64,000 nt of DNA from positions 1-64,000 of the forward strand of contig JAJRZT010000041.1 in NCBI GenBank assembly GCA_024275115.1, written 5' to 3'. This stretch comes from Gammaproteobacteria bacterium. GTDB taxonomy: Bacteria > Pseudomonadota > Gammaproteobacteria > UBA6429 > Thiohalophilaceae. The notes under the pieces were generated by a model. The model did no database searches, was not told the origin of the DNA, and saw only the letters and a list, made by a program, of their open reading frames with translations. Position numbers and translations under genes: made by a program. This document shows, one piece after another, positions 13,479 through 56,030 of the stretch (within the stretch, counting starts at the first letter, position 1; each line of letters starts with the position of its first letter).

Positions 13479-13946
13479 ATGATCATTCACATTCTCGCCA
13501 TTGGAACCAAAATGCCCTCCTGGGTGACGCAAGGCATTGATGAATATGTGCGCCGCATGCCAAAAGAGTGCCAGGTTAAATTTGTTGAATTGCCTTTAGG
13601 CCAGCGCGCGAAGTCTAAAAATATCAAGCAGGCCATGCAGCAGGAAGAAAAAAGTATTCTTGCGGCCATACCTGACAATGTGCAGATTATTGCGCTGGAA
13701 GTCACCGGGCGAAACTGGTCGACCGAGGTTTTGTCAAACAAAATGCAGGACTGGATGCAATCGGGTAAAGACGTTGCTTTGCTTGTCGGTGGTCCTGATG
13801 GCATGACGCAGGCCTGCCTGAATAAAGCGCAGGAAAAATGGTCTTTATCCAACCTAACCTTGCCACACCCTCTGGTTCGAATTGTTCTTGCAGAGCAGCT
13901 TTATCGCGCTTTGATGGTTATCAAAAATCATCCCTACCATAAATAA
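13479..13946 (+). CDS. rlmH: 23S rRNA (pseudouridine1915-N3)-methyltransferase RlmH
   Basis: A SPOUT methyltransferase of 155 residues that methylates pseudouridine 1915 in helix 69 of 23S rRNA. GGPDG at 104-108 and the C-terminal LPHPLVRIVLAEQLYRA with the final NHPYHK are the family's knot and AdoMet motifs. The ATG lies four bases after a long inverted repeat, and no clear ribosome site is visible; the repeat arm itself forms the leader, so initiation may be weak or structure-dependent. It is followed 10 bases later by maf. Confidence 0.97.
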   Translation: MIIHILAIGTKMPSWVTQGIDEYVRRMPKECQVKFVELPLGQRAKSKNIKQAMQQEEKSILAAIPDNVQIIALEVTGRNWSTEVLSNKMQDWMQSGKDVALLVGGPDGMTQACLNKAQEKWSLSNLTLPHPLVRIVLAEQLYRALMVIKNHPYHK

Positions 13947-48005: not shown

Positions 48006-48044
48006 ATACCGCTCTTTCAATCTGTATTATTTAAGGTGGTCTCA

Positions 48045-48821
48045 ATGGCTCAGGAATGTAATTTATCTTTCCAGCAACGTAGCTTGTTCCAGCAGGGTTT
48101 TCAGCGCTATTCATCTGCTGAGCTAAAGCAACTGGAGTGGGGTTTGCGTTTTACACCCGCGGCCTGTTCCTTAATTGCGGCATATGGCTTGTTTACGCAA
48201 CAACCGCTTATTTTGTTTTTTGTTGCCTTGCTGGGTATCTGGGCATTTATTTTCCCTGCTGGCCACCCAATGGACTTAATTTATAATCGCATGATTGCGC
48301 CAGCGTTTAATGCAGTTAAATTGCCAAAAAATCCATTTCAGCGTCGTCTGGCCTGTTTTTCAGCCGGGTTGATGAATATTATTGCCGGTACACTTTTTAT
48401 ATTTGAAATGCCGATGGCGGCAATAGTCGTTGGGGTGAGTTTGTTGTTTCTGCAGGTCGTTGTTATTTTCACGCATTTTTGTACTTTGTCATGGATGTAT
48501 GAAGGTGCCATGCGCGCCTTGGGTAAATGGCACAAGCCGGTGGATATTTTTGAAGCCAAGCTGATGTTAAAAGACGGTGTAACCCTGGTGGATGTTCGCA
48601 GTCAAAATGAATTTGCAAAAGATTCGATTGAAGGTGCCCTAAATTTACCGCTGGAAGATCTTGAACAACATATTGAGACCTTTAAAAAGGATAAATGCCT
48701 GCTTTTTTGTAACAGCGGTACCCGTAGCCATATTGCAGCAGAAAAACTTAAAGAGTTTGGCGTTGATGAAATCTATAATTTAGGTGATTTCAGCCGAGCC
48801 AAGTCGATTGTGGGTGTTTAA
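48045..48821 (+). CDS. Membrane-anchored rhodanese (DUF4395-like plus rhodanese domain)
   Basis: A 258-residue protein: the N-terminal half has about four hydrophobic segments (about 38-70 and 107-145), and the C-terminal half is a rhodanese domain (about 165-258). The active-site loop is CNSGTRS with Cys222, a single-domain rhodanese of sulfur-transfer or sulfur-sensing type. The ATG at 48045 is chosen because AAGGTGG (48034-48040) precedes it at normal spacing; a GTG at 48036 lies in that site. It has its own promoter and terminator. Substrate unknown. Confidence 0.85.
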   Translation: MAQECNLSFQQRSLFQQGFQRYSSAELKQLEWGLRFTPAACSLIAAYGLFTQQPLILFFVALLGIWAFIFPAGHPMDLIYNRMIAPAFNAVKLPKNPFQRRLACFSAGLMNIIAGTLFIFEMPMAAIVVGVSLLFLQVVVIFTHFCTLSWMYEGAMRALGKWHKPVDIFEAKLMLKDGVTLVDVRSQNEFAKDSIEGALNLPLEDLEQHIETFKKDKCLLFCNSGTRSHIAAEKLKEFGVDEIYNLGDFSRAKSIVGV

Positions 48822-48890: not shown

Positions 48891-48904
48891 TTGATATAGA
48901 TCAA
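48891..48904. promoter_or_regulatory. FNR-type box upstream of ubiT
   Basis: TTGATATAGATCAA matches the FNR/ANR consensus TTGAT-n4-ATCAA at all ten defined positions. It is centred 73 bases upstream of the ubiT ATG. A TATAAT follows at 48941-48946, about 55 bases downstream of the box centre; the exact start is not fixed, so class I or II activation is undecided. The same 14 bases occur at 53064-53077. Confidence 0.75.
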
Positions 48905-48970
48905 TAATAAGATAGAAACAGACGGGCAAATAAAGTTAAGTATAATTTAGTGTAGTAAGATAATTTTCTT

Positions 48971-49477
48971 ATGAAAAACTTGAAGCCTTTAAAGTTATTT
49001 TTACGCAGTGTGCCGGACAGTGTACACAGTCAGTTATTCTGCCGTTTGTGTACGCAATTAATGCGTGGCCAGTCGATAGTGAAAAAACTGCAAAAGCTGG
49101 ACGGTAAAGTTGTTCGCCTGACGATTACCGATACTAAAAATAGCTGGTGCTTTCAATTTACAGCGCAGGGATTAAAAGCTGTTGCAAATAATAATGCAAC
49201 GGTTGATGTGCATATTAAAGGGAGTTTAAAAAGTTTTTTACTGCTTGCAACACATAACGAAGATCCTGACACCTTGTTTTTTAATCAGGAACTTTGTCTC
49301 GAAGGCAATACGGAAGACGGTTTGTATTTACGAAATATTCTGGATGCAATGGAATTTAATACAGCCGCGCATTTACAAAAAGTGTTTGGAACATCCGTGG
49401 CGGATATTGTATCCCCCTTAGTTGAGCGTTTTCAGTTAGGTTCGCGGTTGCAGGCATTGGGGAAGACTTTAATCTAG
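48971..49477 (+). CDS. ubiT: Ubiquinone biosynthesis accessory factor UbiT (SCP2 domain)
   Basis: A 168-residue SCP2-domain lipid-binding protein (VRLTITDTKNSWCFQFTAQGLKAV, VDVHIKGSLKSFLLLATHNEDPDTLFFNQELCLEGNTEDG). UbiT takes the place of UbiJ and lets quinone synthesis run without oxygen, together with UbiU and UbiV, which are encoded convergently next to it. An FNR box lies upstream, fitting anaerobic use. The start ATG at 48971 has only a weak ribosome signal. Confidence 0.92.
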   Translation: MKNLKPLKLFLRSVPDSVHSQLFCRLCTQLMRGQSIVKKLQKLDGKVVRLTITDTKNSWCFQFTAQGLKAVANNNATVDVHIKGSLKSFLLLATHNEDPDTLFFNQELCLEGNTEDGLYLRNILDAMEFNTAAHLQKVFGTSVADIVSPLVERFQLGSRLQALGKTLI

Positions 49478-49495
49478 AAAATTTTGGCACTTCTT

Positions 49496-50392
49496 TCAAG
49501 CTTCTTTTTGCCAGTTCATACCCGGTTGTCCATACCAATACCCATTACACCATTCATTATTGCCAGTGCCTTTTTTAAGCCATACGTCTATTTCAGTTTG
49601 CGTGAGTTCTTTGTTAATGGCTTTACGAAACATTTGGACCACGGATGCCATACCATTAATTTGTGGAGACAGTCGCACCACGTCAACCTTTAATGAACGC
49701 ATCTGTTCAATAGCACCGATTAAGTTACAGGGAATACCGGATTGCAACTGAATGCCATTGATATTAAATAACTTGTGGTTTTCCTGCGTGTATAAAGCAA
49801 CACCTTGATCGTCCTGTTTACATAAGAAATCACACTGATCTTTGGGTAAATTATGTTTGCGTGCTGTAAAGCAACGCGCAGAGAATGATAATGGAATATG
49901 TCCGTAAGCAAAAACTTCGGTTTCAATGTTTTCGGGTTTGCTTTCCTGTAAACCCTGAAGGGTCTGTGCTGATAATTCCATTGGCATGACCCAGCGATAG
50001 GCGCCTAAATGGGATAGTAATTTTATTGTTTCAGAGTTGTACATATTAATATGCGGGCCGGCAACAAATTCTCGTACTTCTTTTAGCAGGTAGACGGCCG
50101 ATAAGTCATTTGCTTCCACAGGATAACTTGGGTTATTGCATATTCGTTTTAAGCGTGACAGTTCAGAATCGGCCTCAAGTAAAACCATTGTGGAGAGGAC
50201 GACGTGTTTACCTGCAGCAGTTAATTCAGTCGCAATTCGCAACCAGTCATCTAACTTTATTTCTCGCCGCTTGGCGCAAACATTTTCACCTAAATAGACA
50301 ATATCTACTGGCCATGTTTTTACCTGTTCATAAAAATCATAGACTTTTTCAGCGGGCCAAAAATACTGAATAGGGCCAAGTGATATTCTCAT
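49496..50392 (-). CDS. ubiV: Anaerobic ubiquinone hydroxylation protein UbiV
   Basis: A U32-family protein of 298 residues that forms a heterodimer with UbiU and binds a 4Fe-4S cluster. With the ATG at 50392 (MRISLGPIQYFWP) the cluster Cys residues are 39, 174, 187 and 191; the E. coli equivalents are 39, 180, 193 and 197, so the spacing of the last three is the same. This also rules out the longer upstream start. It follows ubiU by 19 bases. Confidence 0.94.
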   Translation of the reverse strand: MRISLGPIQYFWPAEKVYDFYEQVKTWPVDIVYLGENVCAKRREIKLDDWLRIATELTAAGKHVVLSTMVLLEADSELSRLKRICNNPSYPVEANDLSAVYLLKEVREFVAGPHINMYNSETIKLLSHLGAYRWVMPMELSAQTLQGLQESKPENIETEVFAYGHIPLSFSARCFTARKHNLPKDQCDFLCKQDDQGVALYTQENHKLFNINGIQLQSGIPCNLIGAIEQMRSLKVDVVRLSPQINGMASVVQMFRKAINKELTQTEIDVWLKKGTGNNEWCNGYWYGQPGMNWQKEA

Positions 50393-50411
50393 TTTTTGTT
50401 GCCTCTGATCA

Positions 50412-51428
50412 TTATTGCCATGGCCGATGTAAGGCACCGAGTGTCGTGCTGCAACCTTCGGAAACACGTTGTAATTGTTGTAACCAGTCTGGGTCTGGCT
50501 GGTAACTGTCGGGATTGGCTTTATAAGTATCCAGCGCGGTACGGAAAATACCGGTTACTTTTGCGATATAAGCCGGGCTACGCTGTCGGCCTTCTATTTT
50601 TATTGCAGCCACACCGATATTGACTAACTCGGGTAAAATTTCTAACACATTTAAGCTGGTGGGTTCCTCTATGGCATAAAATATATCGTCGCCAGTTTGG
50701 AAGCGGCCTTTACACAGCGTTGGATACCCGGCGGCTTCACCGGGCTGGTAACGATCAATCAGTACATTATTGAGCCTTGATTGTCGGCCATTAGGGGTTT
50801 CTTCCCAGCTAACGGCATGTGCAGGTGAGCAAACACCCGAGGTATTGGGTGACTCGCCGGTAACATAAGAAGACATAATGCAACGCCCTTCAACCATTAC
50901 ACAGAGACTGCCAAAACCAAATACTTCCACTTCAATGGGGGTGGCCTCCACGACGTTACTTACCTGTGTCATCGAAAGTACCCGAGGCAATATCACCCGT
51001 TTCACTTTAAATTGTTCATAGTAAAAGGCGATGGCATACTGGTTGGTTGCGGAGCCCTGCACAGAAAGGTGACGGCTTAAATCAGGGTGGTGTTGTGTGG
51101 CGTATTGTAATAAACCCAGGTCGGCAATAATAACTGCGTCCAGTTTTAAATCGGCTGCGCTTTGTAATGCCTGTGTCCACAACGGCCAGTTTTCTGACTG
51201 TGGGTAGGTGTTTAATGCCAGCATCACTTTGCAGTTTTTCTGGTGCGCATAATCAACGCCTTGTTGCGCTTCGTCCATATCAAAATTTAAACCCGGAAAA
51301 TTACGTGCATTGGTGGTATTACTAAAACCAAAATAAACTGCATCGGCACCATTATCGACTGCCGCCTTTAATGCTGGCAGGCTTCCGGCAGGGCAAACCA
51401 GATCAGGTATTTGATCTACAATAACCAT
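50412..51428 (-). CDS. ubiU: Anaerobic ubiquinone hydroxylation protein UbiU
   Basis: A 338-residue U32-family protein. Cys176, Cys183, Cys200 and Cys239 have exactly the spacing of the cluster ligands of E. coli UbiU (169, 176, 193, 232). The N-terminus VCPAGSLPALKAAVDNGADAVYFG is typical. UbiU and UbiV carry out O2-independent hydroxylation of the quinone ring. The first 13 bases overlap yhcC, so it is co-translated with two radical SAM genes. Confidence 0.95.
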   Translation of the reverse strand: MVIVDQIPDLVCPAGSLPALKAAVDNGADAVYFGFSNTTNARNFPGLNFDMDEAQQGVDYAHQKNCKVMLALNTYPQSENWPLWTQALQSAADLKLDAVIIADLGLLQYATQHHPDLSRHLSVQGSATNQYAIAFYYEQFKVKRVILPRVLSMTQVSNVVEATPIEVEVFGFGSLCVMVEGRCIMSSYVTGESPNTSGVCSPAHAVSWEETPNGRQSRLNNVLIDRYQPGEAAGYPTLCKGRFQTGDDIFYAIEEPTSLNVLEILPELVNIGVAAIKIEGRQRSPAYIAKVTGIFRTALDTYKANPDSYQPDPDWLQQLQRVSEGCSTTLGALHRPWQ

Positions 51429-52354
51429 GATACCTGCGCTCCATAACTTGTTCCTTGATAACTTTTTCGTTGTTTAAGTTCACTTTCAATTGCATTTAAA
51501 ACATTCCATTTTTGTGAACACCATGCCGGTGCTAATAAAATATTTTTAGATGCTGTTCCCGTTAATCGGTGGTAAATAATTTTTGCCGGGGTAAGCTCGA
51601 CTAAATCGGCAACAGTGTTGATATAGTCAGCCATTTCTAAAGGTTGGTATTCTTTTTTACGCCACTGGTTGGCTAACTGTGTTCCTTTTACAACGTGTAA
51701 AGGGTGTAATTTTATGCCGTCAACGCCAAGTTCCATGGTGCGTAACAAACTAATACGCGCATGTAAATTTGTTTCACCGGGTAAACCAATAATTAAATGG
51801 GTGCAAACCTGTAAGCCTCGCTGACGGGCGGCTTTAACAGCAAGTCGGTATTCTTTATAACCATGACCACGGTTAACGCGTTGCAGCGTTTTGTCAAAAC
51901 TGCTTTGCAAGCCTAACTCCAGCCAAATTTCATACCCTGCATCATGATAGCTGGCAAGTAAATCCAGTACTTTATCGGGCACGCAGTCGGGTCTTGTTCC
52001 AATGGCAAGGCCAATAACATCGGGTTCGGCCAGTGCTTTATCGTAACGTTTTTTCAGAACGCTAATATCATCATAGGTATTGGTATAGGCCTGAAAATAG
52101 GCGATGTATTTTTTTGCACCGGTTCGTTTTCGAATAACACAACGGCCGTTATTAATTTGTTGTGCGATGCTTTCTGGTTGCCGCCCGTTGGGGCTAAATG
52201 AAACGTTATTGCAAAATGTACAACCACCACGACCGATACTTCCATCACGATTAGGGCAGGTAAAATTTGCATCAATTGCAACTTTATGTACGCGTTGTTT
52301 GTAGCGTGAGATCATTGCCTGGCCAAAGGTATGCACATAACTTGATAATGGCAT
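51416..52354 (-). CDS. yhcC: Radical SAM protein of the YhcC/TIGR01212 family
   Basis: A 312-residue radical SAM protein; the cluster motif is unusual, C33 with C45 and C48 (a CPNRDGSIGRGGCTFC stretch, CX11CX2C-like), which marks the TIGR01212 family. GIKLHPLHVVKGTQLA is also typical. The function is unknown in all members I know. The first base overlaps the stop of the preceding radical SAM gene (TAATG), and the last 13 bases overlap ubiU. Confidence 0.9.
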   Translation of the reverse strand: MPLSSYVHTFGQAMISRYKQRVHKVAIDANFTCPNRDGSIGRGGCTFCNNVSFSPNGRQPESIAQQINNGRCVIRKRTGAKKYIAYFQAYTNTYDDISVLKKRYDKALAEPDVIGLAIGTRPDCVPDKVLDLLASYHDAGYEIWLELGLQSSFDKTLQRVNRGHGYKEYRLAVKAARQRGLQVCTHLIIGLPGETNLHARISLLRTMELGVDGIKLHPLHVVKGTQLANQWRKKEYQPLEMADYINTVADLVELTPAKIIYHRLTGTASKNILLAPAWCSQKWNVLNAIESELKQRKSYQGTSYGAQVSWLL

Positions 52355-52986
52355 TAGCCGACCTCGTCTAAAATTCGGCGTCTGAATTTTGCACCTAGAT
52401 CAGAGGCTATTTTTTCACAGGCAGGAATATCAACGTCCGCTAAGCCGTCTATTGCGGTAACAGTAATGTCGTCTATGTGTTGATGTGCTGCACGTATAAA
52501 ATCCTGCACAGCAGTAAAGGCATTGTCAACAAGGGGGCGGCAATGTTTTTCATACAGTTTTGAGTTGTGTGAATTGAGTGAAACCGAGATGGCGTCAATG
52601 CAATTTTTTAATAAGGGTGTGATGTCTTTTTTATAAACGGCATTAGCGAGCCCATCAGTGTTCAGGCGGATTTTTGCACCCTTAAGTTTAAGCTGTGTGG
52701 CTATGCTTAATAATTCATTTAAGCGTAAGGTGGGTTCTCCTAAACCGCAAAACACAATTTCTTTATAGCGGCTGGGGTCACCAACAGCAGAGAGTATGGT
52801 CTGTGTTTCGGGTTCCGATTTAAGGCGTAACAAATACCCTTTAACATCCCATTGCTTGTTAAACTTGGGGCAGAATGAACAGCGTAAAGTGCAGCGGTTT
52901 GTTATATTAATGTAACAATTCCCATGCAGAGTATACGCAATATTTTGAGAGTTAGCGGTGGTTGCTGATAGTTGTGATCCATTCAT
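52354..52986 (-). CDS. TatD-linked type radical SAM protein
   Basis: About 210 residues from the ATG at 52986; a TTG at 53007 would add 7. The radical SAM motif CTLRCSFC (Cys32, Cys36, Cys39) follows CYINITNR, typical of the 'TatD family-associated' radical SAM group. GLGEPTLRLNELL and RLNTDGLAN are further AdoMet-site motifs. No tatD gene is near. First gene of the operon with yhcC-ubiU-ubiV; the FNR box at 53064-53077 is 78 bases upstream of its ATG. Confidence 0.85.
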   Translation of the reverse strand: MNGSQLSATTANSQNIAYTLHGNCYINITNRCTLRCSFCPKFNKQWDVKGYLLRLKSEPETQTILSAVGDPSRYKEIVFCGLGEPTLRLNELLSIATQLKLKGAKIRLNTDGLANAVYKKDITPLLKNCIDAISVSLNSHNSKLYEKHCRPLVDNAFTAVQDFIRAAHQHIDDITVTAIDGLADVDIPACEKIASDLGAKFRRRILDEVG

Positions 52987-53063
52987 TATACTGATGACCT
53001 GTATCAATCCCTGTCGATTAAAATTTGTGACACACAGTATTAAATAGATAGCACAAAATCGTT

Positions 53064-53077
53064 TTGATATAGATCAA
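53064..53077. promoter_or_regulatory. FNR-type box upstream of the radical SAM-ubiUV operon
   Basis: TTGATATAGATCAA, a perfect FNR/ANR consensus and identical to the site before ubiT. On the minus strand a -10-like TAATAC (53042-53037) would place the start about 41 bases from the box centre, the class II activation distance. It is farther (about 180 bases) from ung, so the leftward operon is the better target. Confidence 0.78.
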
Positions 53078-55244: not shown

Positions 55245-56030
55245 ATGGTGGCACGCGCCGACATTATCAACTATTGCGACAATTTGTTAGAAGTTGCGCA
55301 ATTTAAAGACTATTGCCCAAATGGGCTGCAGGTTGAAGGGGCTGAGGATGTGACAAAGATTGTCACCGGTGTAACAGCCAGCCAGGCTTTAATTAATGCT
55401 GCGATTGCGGAAAACGCCGATATGCTTCTGGTTCATCATGGTTTTTTCTGGCAAGGCGAAAACCCGAATATTGTCGGGATTAAACAGCGCCGAATCAAGT
55501 CCTTACTCCAGGCTAATATCAATCTGGTCGCGTACCATCTGCCACTGGATGCGCACCCCTTGCTGGGCAACAACGCGCAACTGGCTAATGTACTGGGTTT
55601 AGAGGTTGAGGGGCGCTTTGGCGGGGATGGTGGCGGGAATGGCAACGGCAGCATGGCCATTGCCATGCACGGTTGTGTGGCAGGCAAAATAGCCGCATCG
55701 CAGTTTGCCAGCCATATTAGCGCGTCACTGAACCGTCAGGTTTTACATATCGCACCTGAGTCAGGGAGTAATCAAAGTATTCATACGGTGGCCTGGTGTA
55801 CAGGGGCTGCACAGGGTTATATTGAAAAAGCGGTTGAATTAGGTGTGGATGCTTTTATTACGGGTGAAGCGTCTGAGCAAACGACCCATATCGCCCGTGA
55901 GTCTGATATCCACTTCTTTGCAGCCGGTCACCACGCGACTGAACGTTACGGTGTCAAGGCTCTAGGTGAACATTTAAGCCAACATCTTGATATAGATCAG
56001 TGTTTTATCGACATTGATAACCCTATCTAA
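55245..56030 (+). CDS. Nif3-like dinuclear metal-centre protein (YbgI)
   Basis: A 261-residue Nif3/YbgI-family protein with the typical DYCPNGLQVEG, MLLVHHGFFW and YHLPLDAHPLLGNNAQLA motifs that bind two metals. A small Gly/Asn-rich loop lies near 125-135. Biochemical role is not established; a GTP cyclohydrolase-like or hydrolase role is suspected for some members. It is encoded upstream of petABC, as seen in several relatives. Its last 15 codons contain an FNR-like motif (55987-56000). Confidence 0.88.
   Translation: MVARADIINYCDNLLEVAQFKDYCPNGLQVEGAEDVTKIVTGVTASQALINAAIAENADMLLVHHGFFWQGENPNIVGIKQRRIKSLLQANINLVAYHLPLDAHPLLGNNAQLANVLGLEVEGRFGGDGGGNGNGSMAIAMHGCVAGKIAASQFASHISASLNRQVLHIAPESGSNQSIHTVAWCTGAAQGYIEKAVELGVDAFITGEASEQTTHIARESDIHFFAAGHHATERYGVKALGEHLSQHLDIDQCFIDIDNPI
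55987..56000. promoter_or_regulatory. FNR-like box inside the end of the Nif3 gene
   Basis: TTGATATAGATCAG, nine of ten defined FNR positions and 13 of 14 bases identical to the two boxes at 48891 and 53064. It sits in codons for Leu-Asp-Ile-Asp-Gln and is 234 bases before petA. A regulatory role for petABC is possible but unproven; the coding match may be chance. Confidence 0.25.

What the first reader, a model, noticed from the sequence alone, without database searches (positions are those of the whole stretch)
48891..53077. Identical FNR boxes in front of ubiT and the radical SAM-ubiU-ubiV operon
Seen: TTGATATAGATCAA at 48891-48904 and 53064-53077, both perfect TTGAT-n4-ATCAA. They flank a convergent unit, ubiT rightward and rSAM-yhcC-ubiU-ubiV leftward. 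Known: UbiT, UbiU and UbiV run O2-independent ubiquinone synthesis, and FNR activates ubiUV in E. coli. Inferred: an anaerobic regulon with both arms under the same factor.
Basis: partly seen in the sequence, partly recalled or inferred. Interest (0 to 1): 0.62.

Follow-up and report, generated by a model that had tools for sequence, protein, structure and literature searches.

The report
FNR-controlled anaerobic ubiquinone genes
Two identical binding sites for the oxygen sensor FNR sit in front of the genes that make ubiquinone without oxygen; this is a known arrangement, but here the same switch also drives two radical-SAM enzyme genes not usually counted in that pathway.

Summary
TTGATATAGATCAA occurs exactly twice in the window, at 48891-48904 and 53064-53077, before ubiT and before the leftward rSAM-yhcC-ubiU-ubiV unit. 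The interpretation (one O2-sensing regulator, FNR, on both arms) is well supported. Across 45 related operon-head promoters and 32 ubiT promoters, boxes with at most one mismatch occur in 30 and 25. Aligned on the box, a -10-like nAnnnT lies at one fixed spacing in 38 of these 55, the FNR class II (-41.5) geometry. A canonical FNR gene is missing from the draft genome, but all three congeners have it, and the neighbouring cco genes run off a contig end, so it is most likely in an assembly gap. FNR control of both ubiT and ubiUV is already published for E. coli and predicted across Pseudomonadota, so the core finding is not new. What is added: the FNR-headed operon here carries yhcC (a TIGR01212 radical SAM, named MnmL/YtqA by NCBI) and a TIGR04038 radical SAM. 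The box follows whichever gene heads the operon. Every relative with YhcC also has UbiUV (25 of 25), and E. coli yhcC is itself a published direct FNR target although unlinked. The ubiT -10 is weak in this genus.

The parts
48891..48904 (+). FNR box TTGATATAGATCAA upstream of ubiT; centre 73.5 nt before the ATG
   Evidence: identical box in congeners G002 and G003, boxes in 25 of 32 ubiT promoters
48931..48936 (+). candidate -10 of the ubiT promoter (TAAAGT; would put the box at -45.5); the canonical position 48927-48932 reads CAAATA, a poor -10
   Evidence: inference
48971..49477 (+). ubiT, SCP2-domain accessory factor of O2-independent ubiquinone synthesis
   Evidence: NF047962 112.5 bits against cut-off 46.9; 29% identity to E. 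coli UbiT
49496..50392 (-). ubiV, U32-family 4Fe-4S hydroxylase subunit
   Evidence: NF047965 382.7 bits against cut-off 275; four cluster Cys at 39, 174, 187, 191 align with E. coli C39, C180, C193, C197
50412..51428 (-). ubiU, U32-family 4Fe-4S hydroxylase subunit
   Evidence: NF047963 537.4 bits against cut-off 440; Cys 176, 183, 200, 239 align with E. coli C169, C176, C193, C232
51416..52354 (-). yhcC, radical SAM protein of family TIGR01212 (NCBI name: tRNA modification radical SAM protein MnmL/YtqA)
   Evidence: 378.3 bits against cut-off 180; 48% identity to E. coli YhcC
52354..52986 (-). small radical SAM protein of family TIGR04038 (TatD-linked), first gene of the operon; a TTG start at 53007 is also possible
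   Evidence: 246.1 bits against cut-off 129.7; Cys triad invariant in 38 homologues; confident radical-SAM fold model, pLDDT 91.8
53036..53041 (-). -10-like AATACT at the class II spacing (centre 32 nt from the box centre), conserved in five genomes
53064..53077 (-). FNR box (TTGATCTATATCAA read on the transcribed strand) of the rSAM-yhcC-ubiU-ubiV operon

Best explanation
This is a two-armed FNR regulon for making ubiquinone without oxygen. When oxygen falls, FNR regains its 4Fe-4S cluster, dimerises and binds the two identical palindromes. At the right-hand box it sits at about -41.5 and recruits RNA polymerase (class II activation) to a leftward operon: TIGR04038 radical SAM, yhcC, ubiU, ubiV. 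At the left-hand box it activates ubiT, running towards the operon. UbiU-UbiV then do the O2-independent ring hydroxylations with UbiT as accessory factor, while YhcC and the small radical SAM supply other oxygen-sensitive chemistry in the same programme. Shown here: boxes, gene identities, conservation, promoter spacing, co-occurrence. Taken from published work on other species: FNR/Anr activation and UbiTUV function. Inferred: that it operates in this organism, the transcription starts, and the roles of the two radical SAM proteins.
For: Exact boxes, far above chance. Boxes with at most one mismatch upstream of 30 of 45 operon heads and 25 of 32 ubiT genes in de-duplicated relatives; per-gene shuffle expectations in the parallel non-de-duplicated run were about 0.5-0.7 sites for 35-37 promoters. 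The box tracks the operon head: before tatD-rSAM when that is first, before yhcC when tatD-rSAM is absent, shared when tatD-rSAM is flipped. Box-aligned -10: nAnnnT at one offset in 38 of 55 promoters; TAnnnT in 26 against a mean of 1.2 at other offsets, 0 of 2000 shuffles. FNR with the N-terminal Cys cluster and E-T-V-S-R helix in all three congeners; own genome broken at that place. Cluster cysteines of UbiU and UbiV conserved. Published: E. coli ubiT and ubiUV both Fnr-activated (PMC10470549), P. aeruginosa ubiUVT by Anr (PMC10247376), FNR sites in 1362 of 1566 triplets (PMC11707229), and E. coli yhbUV and yhcC both direct FNR targets (PMC3688515).
Against: No canonical FNR gene in the draft assembly itself. 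The ubiT arm has CAAATA where relatives have TAnnnT, so its promoter geometry in this genus is not the standard one. No expression or binding data exist for this organism. The relatives are not independent samples.
Confidence: 0.88

Rival explanations
1. The boxes are read by the NO-sensing relative DNR rather than by FNR, so the genes respond to denitrification intermediates, not to oxygen directly.
For: The own genome has a DNR-like gene next to norCB with related palindromes (TTGACCTTAATCAA, TTGACCTACGTCAA) around it, and FNR and DNR motifs overlap (established knowledge of the Crp-Fnr family).
Against: G028 (97% complete) has both boxes and FNR but no close DNR (best match E 8e-10); clear DNR relatives (160 bits or more) are in 18 of the 28 UbiUV genomes, FNR above cut-off in 23 of 28. 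P. aeruginosa ubiUVT is Anr-dependent.
Confidence: 0.06
2. Only the operon arm is truly FNR-activated; the ubiT box is an evolutionary remnant or a weak site, and ubiT is mostly constitutive.
For: The ubiT -10 at the class II spacing is CAAATA here, CCAGCA in G002 and TTAGTA in G003. E. coli ubiT also has a constitutive promoter (PMC10470549).
Against: The 14-mer is perfectly conserved in the congeners that have ubiT while flanks differ, and a shifted -10 (TAAAGT, CAAAGT, TAACAT) would place the box at -45.5, as reported for frdABCD (PMC3688515).
Confidence: 0.15
3. The right-hand box serves the divergent ung gene, or both genes, rather than the rSAM operon.
For: It lies 174-187 bp upstream of the ung start as well.
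Against: In many relatives the box stays at the rSAM/yhcC head where no ung gene was found next to it, and the conserved -10 is on the rSAM side at the right spacing.
Confidence: 0.03

Closest known systems
E. coli ubiT / ubiUV divergent pair with Fnr sites F1 and F2 (Arias-Cartin 2023, PMC10470549)
   Same: Same three genes, an Fnr site on each arm, activation from about class II position; UbiU 56% and UbiV 45% identical.
   Different: E. coli arms are divergent from one intergenic region with imperfect boxes (TTGATTTAAGGCAG, TTGATTTATACCGC); here they are convergent with identical perfect boxes, and the ubiUV arm carries two radical SAM genes.
Pseudomonadota-wide survey of ubiTUV architectures and FNR sites (PMC11707229)
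   Same: FNR sites upstream of ubiU and ubiT in most triplets; compact ubiTUV loci.
   Different: The main text holds no mention of radical SAM (term search); [quoted passage not shown] The figure and supplements could not be read.
E. coli yhcC (b3211), FNR regulon member (Myers 2013, PMC3688515)
   Same: 48% identical protein; direct FNR activation reported by ChIP and expression in the same table as yhbUV.
   Different: In E. coli it is beside arcB and gltB, about 50 kb from ubiUV; here it is inside the ubiUV operon.
P. aeruginosa Anr-controlled ubiUVT operon (PMC10247376)
   Same: Oxygen-sensing FNR homologue activates the same genes.
   Different: There the three genes form one operon with an extra sRNA layer (SicX), not looked for here.

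Membership tests
O2-independent ubiquinone pathway (UbiT, UbiU, UbiV) | All three proteins above curated family cut-offs | tested here: met
O2-independent ubiquinone pathway (UbiT, UbiU, UbiV) | Four 4Fe-4S cysteines in UbiU and four in UbiV | tested here: met
   against residues listed in PMC6747719
O2-independent ubiquinone pathway (UbiT, UbiU, UbiV) | Anaerobic ubiquinone synthesis in the organism | not testable with these tools
   needs quinone analysis
FNR-activated class II promoters | TTGATNNNNATCAA box | tested here: met
FNR-activated class II promoters | Box centred near -41.5, -10 at the matching spacing: operon arm | tested here: met
   AATACT at the exact offset, conserved; start site itself unmapped
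FNR-activated class II promoters | Box centred near -41.5, -10 at the matching spacing: ubiT arm | tested here: inconclusive
   CAAATA at the offset; shifted TAAAGT possible
FNR-activated class II promoters | FNR gene with 4Fe-4S cysteines in the genome | tested here: inconclusive
   absent from the draft, present in three of three congeners, missing block coincides with contig end C56
FNR-activated class II promoters | Anaerobic induction dependent on fnr | not testable with these tools
   needs expression data
YhcC / MnmL (TIGR01212) | Above family cut-off, radical SAM plus Radical_SAM_C domains | tested here: met
YhcC / MnmL (TIGR01212) | tRNA-modifying activity | not testable with these tools
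   rests on the NCBIfam name only; no paper testing it found
TatD-linked radical SAM (TIGR04038) | Above family cut-off, CxxxCxxC and radical-SAM fold | tested here: met
TatD-linked radical SAM (TIGR04038) | Adjacent to or fused with TatD nuclease | tested here: not met
   fusion seen in Nitrospirota and Desulfuromonadales loci; none next to it in the window. This is a naming feature of the family, not its curated membership criterion

The most novel reading that the evidence does not exclude
The operon is an oxygen-replacement module: FNR switches on ubiquinone hydroxylation by UbiUV together with YhcC (and, in one lineage, the TIGR04038 radical SAM), which carries out an oxygen-independent step, such as tRNA wobble-uridine modification or support of UbiUV chemistry, that anaerobic ubiquinone-dependent life needs. 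The full nesting of YhcC inside UbiUV genomes would reflect a functional tie, not only shared anaerobic lifestyle or joint deletion of neighbours.
Probability: 0.25. Interest if true: 0.6.

Novelty: new variant of a known kind. Interest (0 to 1): 0.35.

Why it matters
The FNR control of anaerobic ubiquinone synthesis is already known. The useful addition is a lineage where yhcC, a conserved enzyme without a published role that I could find, sits inside the ubiUV operon, while in E. coli it is separately placed but still under FNR. That makes a concrete guess about YhcC testable in a laboratory strain. The box-aligned -10 signal also shows that class II spacing can be read from comparative data alone in uncultured bacteria.

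Tried and rejected
FNR really absent: rejected as most likely, because the missing block coincides with a contig end and all congeners have FNR. YhcC as a simple stand-in for MnmC: not supported; MnmC is above cut-off in only 7 of 58 relatives and most genomes have neither. TIGR04038 rSAM as a general FNR target: only partly; of its loci not linked to ubiUV, 3 of about 14 have a box. TATAAT at 48941-48946 as the ubiT -10: not conserved in G002 or G003. The one-mismatch box at 55987-56000 before petA (Rieske): no such site in G002. Function of the TIGR04038 protein by structure: the model is a plain radical-SAM fold with equally distant hits (TYW1, PFL-activase, RlmN, NifB, viperin), not informative; no solved close relative by sequence. 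Neighbours of unlinked TIGR04038 genes are inconsistent. Simple promoter scan: number of sites at chance level. Literature searches on YhcC/YtqA/MnmL and TIGR04038 gave nothing on function.

Full report
Observation. The two sites are real and exactly where stated. Perfect TTGATNNNNATCAA occurs three times in 64 kb against 0.17 expected; the identical 14-mer occurs twice against none in shuffles. The genes are ubiT (rightward) and, leftward, a TIGR04038 radical SAM, yhcC (TIGR01212), ubiU and ubiV, all above their curated cut-offs. The four cluster cysteines of UbiU and the four of UbiV known from E. coli are conserved. The operon genes overlap or nearly abut, so one transcript is likely.

Regulator. 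The draft genome (2.52 Mb, 82.7% complete) has Crp/Vfr-like and DNR-like proteins and one Crp-family protein with an FNR-like recognition helix but no N-terminal cysteine cluster. It has no match near the FNR model (best 47.9 bits), while G001, G002 and G003 of the same genus all exceed the cut-off and show the Cys cluster and E-T-V-S-R helix. In G001 fnr is next to ccoNOQP, in G002 next to hisB. In the own genome the cco match runs to base 77333 of a 77335-base contig and the his-fnr block finds only weak, partial matches elsewhere. The absence is therefore most simply an assembly gap.

Footprint. I collected relatives from whole genomes and from a genome-contig scan. After removing duplicates, 30 of 45 operon-head promoters and 25 of 32 ubiT promoters carry a box with at most one mismatch within 220 bp. 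In the parallel non-de-duplicated run the shuffle expectation was about 0.5-0.7 for each set. Upstream of internal ubiU and ubiV, boxes are rare (1 and 2 of 42). The box sits before tatD-rSAM when that gene is first, before yhcC when it is not, and between the two when tatD-rSAM is flipped (G004, G021). In congener G001, where no ubiUV or yhcC was found, tatD-rSAM keeps its box.

Promoter geometry. Aligning the 55 boxed promoters on the box, an nAnnnT hexamer starts 23 bases after the box in 38, and TAnnnT in 26 against a mean of 1.2 at other offsets; no shuffle in 2000 reached this. That spacing puts the box centre at -41.5, the class II position reported for most FNR-activated promoters (PMC3688515). 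The window's operon arm fits (AATACT at 53036-53041, conserved in five genomes). The window's ubiT arm does not fit well (CAAATA); a shift of four bases gives TAAAGT, conserved in kind in the congeners, and a box at -45.5, as listed for frdABCD. This is a real qualification of the 'both arms the same' claim.

What is known. E. coli ubiT and ubiUV are both activated by Fnr through two sites (PMC10470549). P. aeruginosa ubiUVT is activated by Anr (PMC10247376). FNR sites are predicted at 1362 of 1566 ubiTUV triplets (PMC11707229). So the central inference is established knowledge applied to a new genome.

What is added. The operon carries yhcC and, in one lineage, the TIGR04038 gene. In 58 relatives UbiV is in 28 (clear matches) and YhcC (above cut-off) in 25, all 25 within the 28 (Fisher p 2e-13, which overstates because species are related and the genes are neighbours that can be lost together). 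E. coli yhcC, about 50 kb from ubiUV, is nevertheless listed as a direct FNR-activated gene beside yhbUV (PMC3688515), and a box-like ATGACCTGGATCAA lies upstream of it. Together these tie YhcC to the anaerobic programme. NCBI names the family MnmL/YtqA, a tRNA-modifying radical SAM, but I found no paper that tests this, and MnmC distribution does not support a simple replacement story. The tail-to-tail ubiT arrangement is found in 29 of 34 loci with both genes.

Rivals. DNR instead of FNR is disfavoured: FNR tracks UbiUV genomes better than DNR does, and one nearly complete genome (G028) has both boxes with FNR but no close DNR. A role for ung is disfavoured because the box stays with the rSAM/yhcC head in loci where no ung gene was found nearby. 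A mainly constitutive ubiT remains possible.

Limits.

Noticed in passing
window 55987-56000: TTGATATAGATCAG, one mismatch from the two boxes, at the end of the nif3-like gene before petA (Rieske protein); no such site in congener G002.
   Followed up: partly
window 13911-13924: Third perfect TTGATNNNNATCAA site (TTGATGGTTATCAA), near the end of a coding sequence; probably chance.
   Followed up: partly
L019 2591, L020 2603 (own genome contigs C49, C50): Perfect TTGATTTAGATCAA sites upstream of a cytochrome c plus NapA-like oxidoreductase pair, and between a uroporphyrinogen-III methyltransferase and a bacteriohemerythrin: likely further members of the anaerobic regulon.
   Followed up: partly
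L018 (own genome C50): DNR-like regulator beside norCB with palindromes TTGACCTTAATCAA and TTGACCTACGTCAA: the organism probably reduces NO.
   Followed up: partly
L017 2389-3129 (own genome C110): Crp/Fnr-family regulator with an FNR-like recognition helix (TREMVSRIL) but no N-terminal Cys cluster, close to a DsrE-like gene and a second ccoN.
   Followed up: no
L083 5233-6588, L126 5098-6588: TIGR04038 radical SAM fused to a TatD nuclease in Nitrospirota and Desulfuromonadales; in gammaproteobacteria it stands alone and in one lineage sits in the ubiUV operon.
   Followed up: partly
G021 contigs C1 and C3 (L196, L186): One relative assembly carries two complete ubiTUV-yhcC loci, a duplication or a contaminant.
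   Followed up: no
window 48036-48821: Protein with a DUF4395-type membrane part fused to a rhodanese domain, directly upstream of ubiT; conserved next to ubiT in the congeners.
   Followed up: no
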